From assembly GCA_014801865.1 (NCBI GenBank), contig JAAVDH010000044.1, forward strand, positions 1 through 64,000: a stretch of 64,000 nt of DNA, in the 5' to 3' direction. Below, piece after piece: positions 447 to 10,184 of this stretch. Made by a program: the position numbers and the translations under genes. How positions within the stretch are numbered: position 1 is the first letter of the stretch; each line of letters starts with the position of its first letter. The notes beneath the pieces are model-generated. The model did no database searches. It was given only the letters and a program-made list of their open reading frames with translations, and was not told the origin of the DNA. The DNA is from Bacteroides sp. GTDB taxonomy: Bacteria > Bacteroidota > Bacteroidia > Bacteroidales > Muribaculaceae.

Positions 447-3400
447 ATGAAAAAATCATTGTCACAAGCGCTCATTATGCCGCTTGTTCTGGCCGGATGT
501 TTCACCGGGATATCAGCCCGGGCTGATGGAGACCTATCGCTGAAACGCGACAAGAGTCTCGGACGTCCGATTACGTCAACCCTCCTGCAACGGGCACCCC
601 AAAGGACTGCGGCTCCTGCCATAGCCACAAAAGCAAACGGCGCACGTCTGCGCGCTTCAGTGCTGTACACTGACTCATGGGAGAGCACCGGCTCCTACAA
701 ATTCGGCATCTACGAATTCCCGACCGAGGGCTCTTATTCATCCACACCCGTATATCTCAACGACGCCTTCGACCCTACCGGCGGAGCGGCGCTCATAGGC
801 GGCGACCGTTACCTCATGACCCACTCGGAGAGTGCCTACGGCTACACCTTTGTTAACCACCTCGTAACCTCCACCTCTGACTGGGGTTCATTCAAGACAT
901 ACGACGGCAACAATACGTCGATATCCCGCGACATGGCCTGGGACCACGTCAGCGGCAAACTCTACGGATGTTTCCGCACGGAAGACGGCAAGGGATGGGT
1001 GTTCGGCACACTTGACCCCGACAATCTCGATAAGGAGAGAACGAAAATATCGGAACTCACCGAACGCTGGGATGCCATGTCATTTGACCGCATAGGTCGC
1101 CTGTATGTAATCACCCAGTCGGGCAAACTGTGTAGAGTAGACAAAAGCAATGGCGCCATGACCCTCATAGGCGAGACCGGCTTGACCACTTCCTATAACA
1201 CTACCGGCGCTATAGACCCCGAAAGCGGTAAGTTCTACTTCCTCCCGGTACTCGACCAACCCACATACCTCTACGCCATCGACCTCGAAACGGCTCAGGC
1301 CACACCCGTCTACCGCATGAACGACGGCGAACAGCTTGCCGGCATGTACTTCGCAAAAGAGGCCGTAAACGCCTCGGCTCCCGCCGTAGCCACCAACCTG
1401 AGCGCAACCTTTGACCACAAGACATTCAAGGGCAGTGTGAGCTTCCGGATGCCCGCCACCACCGCAGGAGGCACCACCGCAAGCGGCACACTGACCTACA
1501 AAGTGTATGCCAATGGTGAGATCGCAGCTCAGGGCACCGGAACATACGGACAAAACATCACCGCCAACCTCACTCTCAAGGAGGGTGGCGAATACGCCTT
1601 CGAGATTGTGACCTCCAACGCCTCAGGCTCATCGGAGGGCGCGTGGACATCTGCCTTCGTAGGCCCCGATGCCCCCTCTGCTGTAGAATCCGTAGAGATG
1701 ATCAATGTCGGCGACCGTATCATACTGCAATGGAAGGCCGTAACCACGGCGGCCCACGGCGGCCTGATAGAGCCCGACGAAGTGACCTATACCGTGACCC
1801 GCTATCCCGAGGGTAAGGTAGTCGAGCAATCTACCAAGGCCACCGCCTTCACCGAAGTGCTTCCCGAGGGCGAACCGATGATGCTTTACTACACCGTGAC
1901 TCCCGAATATGGCTCACATAAGGGTGCGGAGACCAAGACCACAGAGATACTTTACGGAGCATTCAACACCCCCTACTTCGCAGACTTCACCAACAGCGAC
2001 GACCTGAAATACCTCACCATAGCCGATGCCAACGGTGACGGCCGCAGATTCAATCAGGGCCTCGACGACGACAACAACGCCTGTCTGTATCTTCCCGCAG
2101 CATCCATCACGTATGCCGACGACTATATCTTCTCAGCTCCGCTCAACCTTAAGAAGGGATTGCTCTACCGCCTGTCAGCCATCGTGTCGCCCCGCTACGC
2201 CAAGTATGGATGTAAGGAAAACATTGACCTCGTGCTCGCCTCGGCAGCCGACCCGTCGGCCGTAACCACCGAACTGCTCAAAAACGAACAGATCACCGAA
2301 TACAAGCAGGAGGCCAAGGCTATGTTTAAGGTGGATAATGACGGCGTATACTACGTAGCCATCCATGGTTGCGGCTCACCCGACGCTTTCGGACTCTACG
2401 CCTACAGCATGGAAGTAAGCTCCGACGCTCCCGTGACAGCCCCCGCCGCCCCTGCCCTCACGGCTGTGCGCAACGGCAAGAGCGTGAAAGTCACCGCCAC
2501 CGTACCCACCCGCCTCATCAACGGTGAGGAAGCCGGCGAAATCACCTCAATAGAGATATACCGCAACGACACTCCGATCGTAACCCGTCAGGCTCCCGCC
2601 AAGGGCTCCGAAATAGTATTTGACGACAACAATCTCGCCGACGGACTGTACGTATACTCTGCCGTAGCCTCCAACGCCAACGGCAACGGCGAAAGAGCCG
2701 AGGCACGCGCATATATCGGCGTGAACATACCCGGCGCACCCACCGATGCCGTAGCCAAGGAACACGACGACTGCCGCACCGTGACCGTGACATGGAAAGC
2801 CCCCGAATTTGACCGCGACGGATGCCCCATCGATGCTTCAGACATCACATACACCCTGGCCTCATACAACGAAAGCACCTTGAAGTGGATTCCAGCAGTG
2901 ACCAACATCAAGGGCACTTCCGTGACCTACAAGGCTCTTAACGACGGTAATCAGATATTGGTCAAGTACGGCGTGTTTGCCGAGACCTCAAAAGGTAAGA
3001 ACGAATACGACATGGCCGTGGCTCCGACAATAGCACTCGGTGACCCCTACCACATGCCCTACATCGAGACTTTCGGCGGCACATCGCTCACCGGAGTACT
3101 CGGCGAGGAGAATGAGAACGAGAGCGCAATGTGGCAGATAATGTACAACTACGACCAGGACGGCTCAGGCGGTTCACTCTTCTATACCGGCGCCAAGGAG
3201 AAGAAAGGCTCGGCATTTACAGGCAAGATACTTATAGAAGGTGAGAATCCCACATTCAGCTTCTGGTTCTGGAGTATACCGACTTCACCCGAGGGTGAAG
3301 GACTCACCGTATCGGTCAACGACGGCACTGGCTACCGCGAGATAGGCCACACTGAGATGAATCAGGGAGGCGACGACCAGCACTGGGAAAGATACTCAGT

Positions 3401-4886
3401 GGATGTCAGCGAATTTGTAGGCAAAACCGTTCAGTTTAAAATCACCTACCTCCTCAAGAAGTATGTGCTCTACATCGACAACATACGCCTCACGGAGACA
3501 TACTACAACAACCTGACCGTAAACTCCCTCGTAGGCTTCTCACACGTAAGCCCGGGCTATACCTACACCTACGTGGCCGAGATTGAAAACACCAGTGAGA
3601 GACAGACCCCCGAATACTCCGTGAGCATCGTAGGCAACGACGGCGTAACTTACGGCTCGGCTACAGTGCCCACACTCGAACCCGGCGAACGTTCATATCC
3701 CGAACTCAAGGTTTCGATTTCGCCCATGACACCCGCCGACCTGACGCTTACGGCAGTAATTGACGATGAAGACGAAAATCCCGATGACAATGCCAGCGCT
3801 CCCATGGCCGTCACGGTGGTACACGCCGACGTGCCCGTAGTTACCGACCTCAGCGCCACACGCAACAGTATCAACGCCGACCTCACCTGGAGCGAACCCG
3901 TGGCCGCCAATGAGTTTGAAAAAGTAACCGAAGGCGCCGACCGCCTCATAGCCTTCTCTACCGGATCATCAACCTCTAAGGTGCTCAACGACAATATCGG
4001 CGACTGGACAATGATCAATGCCGACGGTGCAGGCTCGGCCGGACTTGTAGGATTTGAACACCCCAATATCTTCAAGGAGTCCGACATGGCATTCATCGTA
4101 TGGAATCCCTCGCTCTTAGGCATAGTTGTGAAAGACTGGCAGCCCCGCTCGGGTCTGCAATCGTTTGTATGCCTGTTGGCCCCCGAAAAGGCCAACGACG
4201 ACTGGATGGTGTCACCTCTCCTCTCAGGCAAGCAGCAGACCGTGACCTTCTGGGCCAAGGCCGTCAACGACACCTATACCGAGACATTTGAATTCGGCTA
4301 CTCGACCTCTGGCACCGCCACCGCCGACTTCACCATGACCGAAAAGGTGAGCAAGGTGCCCGGCACATGGACACGCTACAGCTACACCATTCCCGCAGGT
4401 AGCACCCACTTCGCCATACGCTGCACATCCAACCGCCAGTTCGCACTCTTCATCGACGATATAGAATTTGAGCGAGCCAACCCCTCCTACGGAGTATCGC
4501 CCGACCACTACATCGTATATCGCGACGGTAAAGCTATCATACAGACTCCCCTCACCTCCTACTCCGACAAGACCCCCGACTCACACACCTATCGTGTGAC
4601 AGCCGTATATGACCAGCGCGGCGAATCGCAGGGCTCCAACGAAGTAACCGTAGGCTCCAACGCCGCCATCGGTGAGGTGTCAGTCACTCCCGCTCCCACA
4701 GCCATAGGCGGCCAAGGCTACATCGACATCTTCAATGCCGAGAGCCTCAACGTAACCGTGACAACCACCGACGGACGAATAGTAACCTGCTTCACCGCTC
4801 ACTCACCCGAAGTGCGCGTAGCTCTCCACCGCGGCATCTACCTCGTCTCTACAGGCAACGCTACCGCCAAAGTAATCGTTGACTAA
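447..4886 (+). CDS. Large secreted protein with fibronectin type III-like and choice-of-anchor J-like domains and a T9SS-like C-terminus
   Basis: 1479 aa ORF; signal peptide MKKSLSQALIMPLVLAGCFTGISARA; repeated P-PAVTNLSAT / VTWKAP segments; WSFW/DDIEF jelly-roll-like motifs; C-terminal TTDGRIV...LHRGIYLVSTGNATAKVIVD. Confidence 0.8.
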   Translation: MKKSLSQALIMPLVLAGCFTGISARADGDLSLKRDKSLGRPITSTLLQRAPQRTAAPAIATKANGARLRASVLYTDSWESTGSYKFGIYEFPTEGSYSSTPVYLNDAFDPTGGAALIGGDRYLMTHSESAYGYTFVNHLVTSTSDWGSFKTYDGNNTSISRDMAWDHVSGKLYGCFRTEDGKGWVFGTLDPDNLDKERTKISELTERWDAMSFDRIGRLYVITQSGKLCRVDKSNGAMTLIGETGLTTSYNTTGAIDPESGKFYFLPVLDQPTYLYAIDLETAQATPVYRMNDGEQLAGMYFAKEAVNASAPAVATNLSATFDHKTFKGSVSFRMPATTAGGTTASGTLTYKVYANGEIAAQGTGTYGQNITANLTLKEGGEYAFEIVTSNASGSSEGAWTSAFVGPDAPSAVESVEMINVGDRIILQWKAVTTAAHGGLIEPDEVTYTVTRYPEGKVVEQSTKATAFTEVLPEGEPMMLYYTVTPEYGSHKGAETKTTEILYGAFNTPYFADFTNSDDLKYLTIADANGDGRRFNQGLDDDNNACLYLPAASITYADDYIFSAPLNLKKGLLYRLSAIVSPRYAKYGCKENIDLVLASAADPSAVTTELLKNEQITEYKQEAKAMFKVDNDGVYYVAIHGCGSPDAFGLYAYSMEVSSDAPVTAPAAPALTAVRNGKSVKVTATVPTRLINGEEAGEITSIEIYRNDTPIVTRQAPAKGSEIVFDDNNLADGLYVYSAVASNANGNGERAEARAYIGVNIPGAPTDAVAKEHDDCRTVTVTWKAPEFDRDGCPIDASDITYTLASYNESTLKWIPAVTNIKGTSVTYKALNDGNQILVKYGVFAETSKGKNEYDMAVAPTIALGDPYHMPYIETFGGTSLTGVLGEENENESAMWQIMYNYDQDGSGGSLFYTGAKEKKGSAFTGKILIEGENPTFSFWFWSIPTSPEGEGLTVSVNDGTGYREIGHTEMNQGGDDQHWERYSVDVSEFVGKTVQFKITYLLKKYVLYIDNIRLTETYYNNLTVNSLVGFSHVSPGYTYTYVAEIENTSERQTPEYSVSIVGNDGVTYGSATVPTLEPGERSYPELKVSISPMTPADLTLTAVIDDEDENPDDNASAPMAVTVVHADVPVVTDLSATRNSINADLTWSEPVAANEFEKVTEGADRLIAFSTGSSTSKVLNDNIGDWTMINADGAGSAGLVGFEHPNIFKESDMAFIVWNPSLLGIVVKDWQPRSGLQSFVCLLAPEKANDDWMVSPLLSGKQQTVTFWAKAVNDTYTETFEFGYSTSGTATADFTMTEKVSKVPGTWTRYSYTIPAGSTHFAIRCTSNRQFALFIDDIEFERANPSYGVSPDHYIVYRDGKAIIQTPLTSYSDKTPDSHTYRVTAVYDQRGESQGSNEVTVGSNAAIGEVSVTPAPTAIGGQGYIDIFNAESLNVTVTTTDGRIVTCFTAHSPEVRVALHRGIYLVSTGNATAKVIVD

Positions 4887-7122: not shown

Positions 7123-7426
7123 CTAATTAAAATTACCCCCCCCATTTTAAATTTATATTTAATATAATTTAACTTATTGATTATCTATATTAAAGCACTG
7201 ACAATTATTAACAATAATTAATGCTTACCATCCAAGGCAATAGGTGTTCAATAATTATTGCAGGCTTATTTTTACCATTATAAATTTTCTTTAGTGGCGA
7301 TACAATATGTATAATTCTATGCAATATAACAAATTTTGTCTAAATTGCAGCACCTTTCATACTGAAAAGGTGTGTTAGTAAGCGAGAACAATCTTTAATT
7401 ACCAAAATCATTAAAGCACTGGCGTC

Positions 7427-8878
7427 ATGAGAAATCAACTATTATTTATCCTGAGCGGATTGATGGCGACCGGCCTGACGGCTATGGGGGCGAACCGCGA
7501 GGTGACATTGCGCAGCAACGGTACGTCTGCCGACGTGGCGGTAACTGTCATTGACAATAAGCTTGCCACGGCTGATGAGGAGAATACGATACAAACCTCA
7601 TTGCTGCTCAACAGCGAACTGCGTGGCAGTGTGGAAGATGCAGGATGGTATTTCCCCGACAGTCTGACCCATAAACACCGCCAGGCGATGGATGGCCTCA
7701 TGCTCACCCAGGGGTGGAGCCGATATGACATTCCCGCAGCTATTGACGGCAGATATACTGAGGTTGAGTCAGAACTTGAAATAGGCCCCTCGATAGGTGG
7801 CATAGTTAAGTCACGCTGGAAAGGTAAGCCTATGAAGGATGTGGCCGTATTGACCTTGGCTCCATCAATGGGATACGTCGGTGAAGCAATTACCGATGAA
7901 AAAGGAGAATTCGTATTTACCGATAAGGATTTCCCTGACGGTACAAGATTTATATTTCAGGCACTGAATGAGAAAGGTGGTAACGAGGGCAATTTCGATA
8001 TTATTCCCGCAAAGTATCCCTCAGTAGCACCTATTAAATCCATTTACTCGTCTAAGGATAAAAGCCAAATTGAGGAAATGGCTGACTACGACTGGCGCAT
8101 AACCCACTCTGACGCTATTATGCTTGGCGAGGTATTAGTTGTGCAGAAAAAGCAGAGTGACTATGAGAACCCGATTGAGCTTATGGCGCGCGGTGAAGTT
8201 AGCTATAAGGATATAGAAGATAAGAACTTGAGAACTGTAGAGGATGTATTACGTACGATACCCGGTATTGTGGTTTATGAGCGTAAAGCATTTTATCAGG
8301 GAAGACCGGTTTCTTTCTGGGTTGATAATCTACCTTGGGAACCCATATCCGGGCTACCACAATCATCAGATTATGTAGCATCTCCAGGGAAGCTACTTAA
8401 TGCATCAAGACTGTTTCGTGGATACCATAGCACTTCGATTAGACTCCCACATACGTCGAAAGGTATAATTGAAACTCCTTTGGGAGAAATTGATCAGGTA
8501 TTGCCGGTTGATTTCATCAAAAAAATACAGTACTTTCCACCAACAGCCTCAAAGCTACTGAGTCCATGGACGGAAGGTGGTATTATTATGATTACGACAA
8601 AGGATGGTACAGAAAAGGTGTCGCGTCCTGACTGGAGGATGCGCTACGCTACCCCCTTGGGGTATCAGCGGAGCAAAACCTTCTACACCCCCAAGTACGA
8701 GCTGATGGCCGACTATGAACTCAACAATCGTCCGACACTATACTGGATTCCCAGTGCGACGGTTGACCGTTTCGGCAATCTGTCAATGCCCATTCCTGCC
8801 TCCGTTGAGAGCTGTACGCTGATAGCAGAAGGTATTGACACCGACGGACATCCCGTGAGAATCACCAAAACCATGTAA
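7427..8878 (+). CDS. Secreted protein resembling the C-terminal half (TonB plug-like region) of Bacteroidetes MG2/carboxypeptidase-regulatory proteins
   Basis: 483 aa; signal peptide; VAVTVIDNK...LLLNSELRGSVEDAGWYF...LMLTQGWSRYD motif series; then IGGIVKSRWKGKPMKDVAV regulatory-like domain; plug-like LRTVEDVLRTIPGIVV; GGIIMITTKDG. Confidence 0.65.
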   Translation: MRNQLLFILSGLMATGLTAMGANREVTLRSNGTSADVAVTVIDNKLATADEENTIQTSLLLNSELRGSVEDAGWYFPDSLTHKHRQAMDGLMLTQGWSRYDIPAAIDGRYTEVESELEIGPSIGGIVKSRWKGKPMKDVAVLTLAPSMGYVGEAITDEKGEFVFTDKDFPDGTRFIFQALNEKGGNEGNFDIIPAKYPSVAPIKSIYSSKDKSQIEEMADYDWRITHSDAIMLGEVLVVQKKQSDYENPIELMARGEVSYKDIEDKNLRTVEDVLRTIPGIVVYERKAFYQGRPVSFWVDNLPWEPISGLPQSSDYVASPGKLLNASRLFRGYHSTSIRLPHTSKGIIETPLGEIDQVLPVDFIKKIQYFPPTASKLLSPWTEGGIIMITTKDGTEKVSRPDWRMRYATPLGYQRSKTFYTPKYELMADYELNNRPTLYWIPSATVDRFGNLSMPIPASVESCTLIAEGIDTDGHPVRITKTM

Positions 8879-8912
8879 TACTCCCCATAACCCATATAAA
8901 TATAAAACCATT

Positions 8913-10184
8913 ATGAATATCAAGACCATAATATACCGGCTCCTATTTGTCGCGATAGCCATAGCGGCAGCCACTCCCGCAGCCACGGGCAGCGAACCTA
9001 CCGTGCCCTTTGACACCATAAGCGCCCGACTCGACTATCAGCGCTATGTGTTCCCGCAGGAAAAGATACACGTGACCACCGATCAGGGACGTTACGTGAC
9101 AGGCGACACGATATGGCTGCGCGCATGGGTGACCGACGCGGCCTCGGGCCATCAGGTAAACGCCAGCAAGTATGTGTACGTAGAGCTGCTGTCGCCCTTC
9201 GGCAAAGTAGAGAAGCGCATCAAGATTCGCGAGGATAACGGCCTCTACTCAGGCTATCTTGACCTTGACGAGGAGCTGCCCGAAGGCAACTACACCCTGG
9301 CGGCCTATACTACCTTTATGGAGGGACTCGGCACTGACTATTTCTTCAGAAAACCGTTGGGAGTAATCTCGCCCTACTCTACCCAGGCAGAGATAGTGAC
9401 CACCTTTGAGCCTGCCGATAATGATGAGTCGTTGAAGATGAGCCTGTCGTTTCAAGACCGCGAAGGAAAGCCCCTGCACTATGAAACTATGTACGTGACC
9501 TCCTCGACAGAGAAGCAGATGGAGGGCGGACGCGGCACACGCACACGCAACTTCACGCTGAAGCGCAAGGACTTTCCCGAACGTGTGGCGCTGGTGCAGC
9601 TCGATCACTACAAGAAGTATATAGTGCTCCCCCCGAAGGAGGGACTGCTTGACGTGACATTCCACCCCGAGGGTGGCTACCTGATACCCGGTGTGCCCTG
9701 CAAGGTTGGCTTCAAGGCCATCGACGGAGCGGGCGCAGGCGTAGACGTGACCGGAGTGATAACCACTTCGCGCGGCGACACTGTGGCCAATCTGCAGACC
9801 ATTCACAAGGGTATCGGCTCGGTGATGATTCTCCCCGTGGAGGGTGAGCGCTATACGGCCCACATCAACGGACACACATTTGAACTGCCCGCGACCAATG
9901 CGGAGGCAGCCGTGATACACGCCGACAACTCCAAGGGCGACTACTTAGACATCACCCCAGTAGGAAACGTGCCTGACGGCGCCATGGTGGTGGTGCAGAG
10001 CCACGGTGTGGCGCGCTATGCCGCACCTGCCGAAAAGGGCAAGACCTATCGCGTGCCCGCCACAGAGTTAGGCGACGGCGTAGTGCAGATACTCCTCATG
10101 ACTGCCGACATGCAGCCCCTGAGCGAACGCCTGATATTCAACTACCCCGCCCACGACACCATCCTGTCAGTGACCCGCCGATAA
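8913..10184 (+). CDS. Secreted protein with macroglobulin MG2-like domain (N-terminal half of the same family)
   Basis: 423 aa; signal peptide; YVFPQEKIHVTTDQGRYVTGDTIWLRAWVTDAASGHQVNASKYVYVELLSPFGKV...GNYTLAAYTTFM; ends at PLSERLIFNYPAHDTILSVTRR. Confidence 0.7.
   Translation: MNIKTIIYRLLFVAIAIAAATPAATGSEPTVPFDTISARLDYQRYVFPQEKIHVTTDQGRYVTGDTIWLRAWVTDAASGHQVNASKYVYVELLSPFGKVEKRIKIREDNGLYSGYLDLDEELPEGNYTLAAYTTFMEGLGTDYFFRKPLGVISPYSTQAEIVTTFEPADNDESLKMSLSFQDREGKPLHYETMYVTSSTEKQMEGGRGTRTRNFTLKRKDFPERVALVQLDHYKKYIVLPPKEGLLDVTFHPEGGYLIPGVPCKVGFKAIDGAGAGVDVTGVITTSRGDTVANLQTIHKGIGSVMILPVEGERYTAHINGHTFELPATNAEAAVIHADNSKGDYLDITPVGNVPDGAMVVVQSHGVARYAAPAEKGKTYRVPATELGDGVVQILLMTADMQPLSERLIFNYPAHDTILSVTRR

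What the first reader, a model, noticed from the sequence alone, without database searches (positions are those of the whole stretch)
7427..10184. Split and order-swapped halves of an MG2/TonB-plug-type secreted protein
Seen: the upstream ORF (483 aa) opens, right after its signal peptide, with VAVTVIDNK...LLLNSELRGSVEDAGWYF...LMLTQGWSRYD and ends with a regulatory/plug-like part. The downstream ORF (423 aa) has the MG2-like start (EKIHVTTDQGRYVTGDTIWLRAWV...) and stops just after PLSERLIFNYP. Known: in many Bacteroidetes these segments occur in one protein of roughly 800-900 aa, in the order MG2, SERL(V/I)F, then LLL(S/N)SELRG...LMLTQGW, then plug. Inference: here the C-terminal half precedes the N-terminal half and each has its own signal peptide. 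This could be a circularly permuted or fissioned two-subunit version that reassembles in the periplasm or outer membrane, or the residue of a tandem duplication with loss of the outer halves.
Basis: partly seen in the sequence, partly recalled or inferred. Interest (0 to 1): 0.8.

Follow-up and report, generated by a model that had tools for sequence, protein, structure and literature searches.

The report
One secreted protein split, halves swapped
A secreted protein that most gut Bacteroidales make as one chain is made here, and in about half of the sampled species of a related genus including what appears to be a cultured mouse-gut strain, as two separate secreted chains encoded in reversed order, often with several versions of the second half per single first half; this points to a mix-and-match two-part protein that can be tested in a cultivable gut bacterium.

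Summary
ORF 7427-8878 (483 aa) is the C-terminal half and ORF 8913-10184 (423 aa) the N-terminal half of a family that is otherwise a single secreted protein, mostly 790-960 aa. The halves do not overlap: about 5 residues are missing at the cut, which falls in a predicted loop between two beta-strands of a macroglobulin-like domain. Each half has its own signal peptide. It is neither an assembly error nor debris: the genome holds a second C-half (74% identical, dN/dS about 0.18), and split loci with order C(-C)-N occur in other Muribaculaceae, including a closed genome whose length (3,306,969 bp) exactly matches Muribaculum intestinale YL27. AU tests reject a single origin for all split loci, so fission happened at least twice. 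Tandem fused copies are common, which fits tandem duplication with loss of the outer halves. Five split genomes carry one detected N but 2-4 C copies; in these the part next to the cut is conserved and the plug-like part hypervariable. I infer a two-subunit protein, one constant N subunit with interchangeable C subunits. Physical reassembly and function are untested. The fold is alpha-2-macroglobulin/C3-like, with no thioester domain detected.

The parts
7354..7426 (+). Leader shared with the second C-half copy on contig C23 (likely promoter/5' UTR duplicated with the gene); not found elsewhere in the genome
7427..8878 (+). C-half gene (483 aa): signal peptide, MG-type strands B/C, helical LLLNSELRG...LMLTQGW segment, CarboxypepD_reg-like domain, plug-like domain, C-terminal beta region
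7427..7492 (+). Signal peptide of the C-half (aa 1-22, cleavage site approximate, no lipobox)
   Evidence: sequence
7493..7561 (+). Start of mature C-half (aa 23-45, NREVTLRSNGTSADVAVTVID..): strands B and C of the MG-type domain that is cut
7772..8002 (+). CarboxypepD_reg-like region (aa 116-192), below Pfam cut-off
8117..8611 (+). Plug-like region (aa 231-395), weak Pfam Plug match; hypervariable between C copies
8879..8912 (+). 34-bp gap between the two genes; co-transcription likely (inference)
8913..10184 (+). N-half gene (423 aa): signal peptide, MG2 domain and further MG-type beta-sandwiches
9063..9311 (+). MG2 domain (aa 51-133, E=8.8e-7, just below the Pfam cut-off)
10155..10181 (+). 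Tail DTILSVTRR of the N-half: strand A of the MG-type domain whose other strands are in the C-half

Best explanation
The pair is a fissioned alpha-2-macroglobulin-like secreted protein. Shown: a family that is normally one chain (MG domains - CarboxypepD_reg-like - plug-like - C-terminal beta region) has been cut once, without overlap, in a loop of an MG-type domain; each half has its own signal peptide; the genes lie 34 bp apart in the order C then N; C copies in this genome, and N and C orthologues in relatives, are under purifying selection. Inferred: the order arose from a tandem duplication (N1-C1-N2-C2, a state seen in relatives) that lost the outer halves N1 and C2, since losing the inner halves only restores a fused gene. 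Inferred: the two chains meet in the periplasm or at the outer membrane and rebuild the ancestral assembly, possibly with the N tail donating strand A to the open MG domain of the C chain. Because one N gene coexists with 2-4 C genes that share the part next to the cut but differ strongly in the plug-like part, the N chain is probably a common subunit serving several alternative C chains.
For: Complementary coverage with about 5 residues lost. Cut in a predicted loop. Second C copy, dN/dS about 0.18. Same C(-C)-N arrangement in G507, G532, G492, G592, G636, G580; G507 is one closed contig with the exact length of M. intestinale YL27. At least two origins. Tandem fused genes in L114, G538, G513, G560. 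N of YL27 vs G532 dN/dS 0.08, C orthologues 0.08-0.17. Every one of the nine genomes with a split N also has a C. Conserved junction side, variable plug side in C copies.
Against: No direct evidence that the chains bind. One N gene per several C genes, and C copies far from any N, could also mean that C chains act alone. G565 probably has N-C order and G586 has other genes between C and N, so order and adjacency are not strictly kept. No half-decayed tandem intermediate was seen. The C-half model is of low confidence.
Confidence: 0.65

Rival explanations
1. The gene was split, but the halves no longer work together: each has become an independent secreted protein (subfunctionalisation), and the shared locus is a relic.
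For: Lone C copies away from N in G000, G507, G532 and G565; unequal copy numbers; in the window the MG domain at the cut is incomplete in each chain.
Against: N and C co-occur in all nine split genomes and are adjacent in most. The C part next to the cut is the most conserved part of the paralogues. Two origins ended with the same adjacent arrangement.
Confidence: 0.27
2. Real split pair, but the swapped order came from another route: fission in N-C order followed by duplication or transposition of the C gene to the upstream side and loss of the original.
For: C genes duplicate and move on their own. In G565 a C-half sits directly upstream of tolC where YL27 has N, and N is followed by a new signal-peptide ORF, suggesting N-C order there.
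Against: Two separate clades reached C-N, which tandem duplication with outer loss predicts directly; tandem fused pairs are frequent.
Confidence: 0.35
3. Assembly error, frameshift or pseudogene debris of a fused gene.
For: The window genome is a fragmented assembly, 70.8% complete. Broken fused genes do exist in the family: G016, G242, G444, G455, G660, L120.
Against: Those broken genes keep N-C order and give the C part no signal peptide. The architecture recurs in a closed single-contig genome, and the second C copy is old and under constraint.
Confidence: 0.02

Closest known systems
Single-chain Bacteroidales MG2 / CarboxypepD_reg-like / plug-like secreted protein (e.g. L113 CANOLV010000038.1, tandem L114 JAIDSM010000231.1)
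   Same: Homologous along the whole length: 44.6% (N) and 37.4% (C) to L113; same motif order within each half
   Different: One chain, one signal peptide, N before C; here two chains, two signal peptides, C gene before N gene
Alpha-2-macroglobulin / complement C3 superfamily (MG-domain arrays)
   Same: MG2 match and fold similarity of the fused relative to C3, CD109, TEP1 and bacterial A2M
   Different: Much shorter; no thioester domain found; carries a CarboxypepD_reg/plug-like insert
TonB-dependent receptor plug domain
   Same: Weak Plug match in the C-half and in L113; weak profile matches to a SusC homologue and the colicin I receptor
   Different: No beta-barrel in the frame; match below the Pfam cut-off
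Circular permutation by duplication (e.g. saposin/swaposin, PMC3320104)
   Same: Tandem duplication followed by loss of redundant outer parts swaps the order of halves
   Different: The result here is two separate genes, not one permuted chain, and it happened at least twice in one family

Membership tests
Bacteroidales MG2/CarboxypepD_reg/plug-like secreted protein family | Sequence homology over the full length, in order within each half | tested here: met
Bacteroidales MG2/CarboxypepD_reg/plug-like secreted protein family | Single polypeptide, N part before C part | tested here: not met
   two ORFs in reversed order, so this is a split variant
Bacteroidales MG2/CarboxypepD_reg/plug-like secreted protein family | Signal peptide | tested here: met
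   by inspection of sequence, one on each half; no signal-peptide program run
Alpha-2-macroglobulin superfamily | Array of MG domains | tested here: met
   MG2 E=8.8e-7, just below the Pfam cut-off; fold matches of the fused relative
Alpha-2-macroglobulin superfamily | Thioester domain | tested here: not met
   No such Pfam hit in either half or in fused relatives; many superfamily members lack a working thioester
TonB-dependent receptor | Plug domain | tested here: inconclusive
   E=0.03 in the window, 0.0012 in L113, both below the cut-off
TonB-dependent receptor | 22-strand outer-membrane barrel | tested here: not met
   483 aa, no barrel hit
Two-subunit (heteromeric) protein | Physical association of the two chains | not testable with these tools
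   no two-chain modelling or experiment available

The most novel reading that the evidence does not exclude
A combinatorial secreted system: one constant N subunit (MG-domain arm) pairs with a set of C subunits that share the region next to the cut but carry recombining, hypervariable plug-like modules (synonymous sites near or at saturation in the plug region, dS 0.2-0.7 in the region before it). Fission of a single-chain ancestor would have made the plug module exchangeable, and this was selected at least twice in Muribaculaceae.
Probability: 0.4. Interest if true: 0.75.

Novelty: new variant of a known kind. Interest (0 to 1): 0.6.

Why it matters
It is a natural, repeated experiment in which the same protein family was cut in two with the order of the halves reversed. 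Fused, tandem and split states all survive in living relatives, so the route from one chain to two subunits can be followed. Because a split locus lies in a genome whose length matches a cultured gnotobiotic strain (M. intestinale YL27), whether such halves reassemble, and whether one subunit serves several hypervariable partners in a gut commensal's envelope, can be tested directly.

Tried and rejected
A scan of the genome collection with the N-half alone found no relative; the C-half alignment did. The GC difference between the halves (N 57.6%, C 47.2%) was considered as a sign of separate origins and rejected: the fused relative shows the same asymmetry (66% vs 54%). A mobile leader-plus-signal-peptide cassette was considered and not supported: only the two C copies carry it. 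Short frames in G016, G242, G444, G455, G660 and L120 looked like further splits but appear to be frameshifts or stops in N-C order; those in G485, G550, G535, G440, G501 and G781 are cut by contig ends. The C-half model (mean pLDDT 49) was used only for rough secondary structure. Literature searches found no study of this family in the library.

Full report
WHAT IS THERE. Two + strand ORFs lie 34 bp apart: 7427-8878 (483 aa) and 8913-10184 (423 aa), each with a signal peptide by inspection and no lipobox Cys. The downstream one carries the MG2 domain (E=8.8e-7). The upstream one has weak CarboxypepD_reg (E=0.005) and Plug (E=0.03) matches; all three are below Pfam cut-offs. In fused relatives these segments form one chain. 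On the closest (L113, 910 aa) the downstream ORF aligns to 12-415 and the upstream one to 447-905. The stretch between is the start of a small MG-type domain. The N-half ends ...SERLIFNYPAHDTILSVTRR and the mature C-half starts NREVTLRSNGTSADVAVTVID, whereas fused proteins read, for example, SERLLFARTEHADSTRITPSRPYYENRDKVTLTIDLDGYADPTSSVAVAVTD. So the cut loses about 5 residues and duplicates none. In the model of L113 it lies between strands 418-421 and 427-431, although confidence there is only about 60 (the mapping is my reading of the alignment).

NOT AN ARTEFACT. The same genome holds a second C-half on another contig (G000:C23:18309-19889, 527 aa, 74% identical). Homology starts 73 bp before the ATG and stops at the end of the coding region; no N-half lies near it. 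Between the copies dN=0.174 and dS=0.954: an old duplication under purifying selection. A single N-half was found (genome 70.8% complete).

RELATIVES. In the 33 other species of the genus only distant fused homologues (about 30% identity) were seen, in a minority of genomes. In 393 genomes of the order nearly all hits are single frames of about 790-1,580 aa, with some shorter ones from another shorter architecture, broken genes or contig ends. The family is taken to be Muribaculaceae because contigs of G754 and G758 have the lengths of records L115 and L116, the former titled Muribaculaceae. Searches of 397 genomes of the family with each half found many fused proteins at 35-45% identity, several as tandem pairs (L114, G538, G513, G560), and further split loci: G507 C(523)-C(543)-N; G532 C-N; G492 and G636 C-N; G592 C-C-N; G580 C-N; G586 C and N with other genes between; G565 N followed by a new signal-peptide ORF at a contig end, with a C-half directly upstream of tolC on another contig. 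In the genus of G507, 7 of 14 held species carry split loci. G507 is one contig of 3,306,969 bp, exactly the published length of Muribaculum intestinale YL27, CP021421 (PMC5646386).

HOW MANY FISSIONS. In the N tree G492, G636, G592, G580 and G586 form one clade (100), apart from the clade (88) with the window, G507, G532, G565 and the fused G544. The C tree agrees on the separation and places the window's C copies beside fused G544 (98). Holding all split loci as one clade is rejected (N p=0.0007; C p=0.023). Holding the window with the G507 group is not (p=0.061 and 0.371). The groups were named after the trees were seen, so the p-values are somewhat optimistic. So there were at least two fissions, possibly three. 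The cut is between strands A and B in the window and in clade A, but before strand A in the G507 group.

WHY THE ORDER IS SWAPPED. From a tandem pair N1-C1-N2-C2, losing the inner halves only restores a fused gene, whereas losing the outer halves leaves C1-N2 as two genes. This predicts C-N order, and tandem pairs are observed. It resembles permutation by duplication (PMC3320104). It is inference: no half-decayed intermediate was seen, C genes also move on their own, and G565 suggests that the order can change.

WHAT THE PROTEIN IS. A profile search of solved structures gives A2ML1 (E=1.4e-4). The model of the fused relative matches complement C3, CD109, TEP1 and bacterial alpha-2-macroglobulins (E about 1e-17 to 1e-14, low global TM-score). 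There is no thioester-domain hit and no barrel. It is best described as a short alpha-2-macroglobulin-like MG array with an inserted CarboxypepD_reg/plug-like module, of unknown function in the literature searched.

HOW IT MAY WORK. N and C copy numbers are unequal: window genome 1:2, YL27 1:4, G532 1:2, G565 1:2, G592 1:2 (only G507 is closed). Among C copies of one genome, aa 23-192 are mostly 83-99% identical while the plug-like region is 39-62% identical with many gaps. Synonymous divergence is 0.2-0.73 in the former and 1.9 to saturated in the latter. Uneven dS suggests that the 5' part is homogenised, or the plug part exchanged, by recombination, so conservation of the 5' part is not by itself proof of selection for docking; low dN there (0.04-0.08) is. 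The simplest working model is one N subunit docking on the conserved face of several C subunits with different plug-like modules, perhaps by donating strand A. Signal peptides and purifying selection are supported; binding, location and function are not tested. The rival, independent function of each half, remains open.

Noticed in passing
L113 (G544) 8049-8939 +: About 650 bp downstream of the fused gene lies a 297-aa ORF with a signal peptide that matches only the CarboxypepD_reg/plug-like part of the C-half: an even smaller secreted derivative of the family.
   Followed up: no
window 7354-7426; L156 upstream of both C genes: The leader before duplicated C genes is as conserved as, or more than, the genes themselves (about 95% in the window pair; nearly identical about 85 bp before the two operon C genes of G507). 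Promoter, UTR or trace of gene conversion.
   Followed up: partly
L205, L206, L207 and L231, L232, L230 (G492, G580, G592): These genomes carry both a split C-N locus and a fused paralogue (935-964 aa) elsewhere, whereas in G507, G532, G565 and the window genome no fused close homologue was found.
   Followed up: partly
L158 5511-5665 and L213 (G565): The N-half contig ends inside a new signal-peptide ORF and another contig starts inside a C-half followed by tolC: probably N-C order in this species, unlike its relatives.
   Followed up: partly
window 447-4886 and L158 1-4128: A large secreted protein of similar layout (1,479 and at least 1,375 aa) lies upstream of the split genes both in the window and in G565; possibly shared context, possibly chance.
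   Followed up: no
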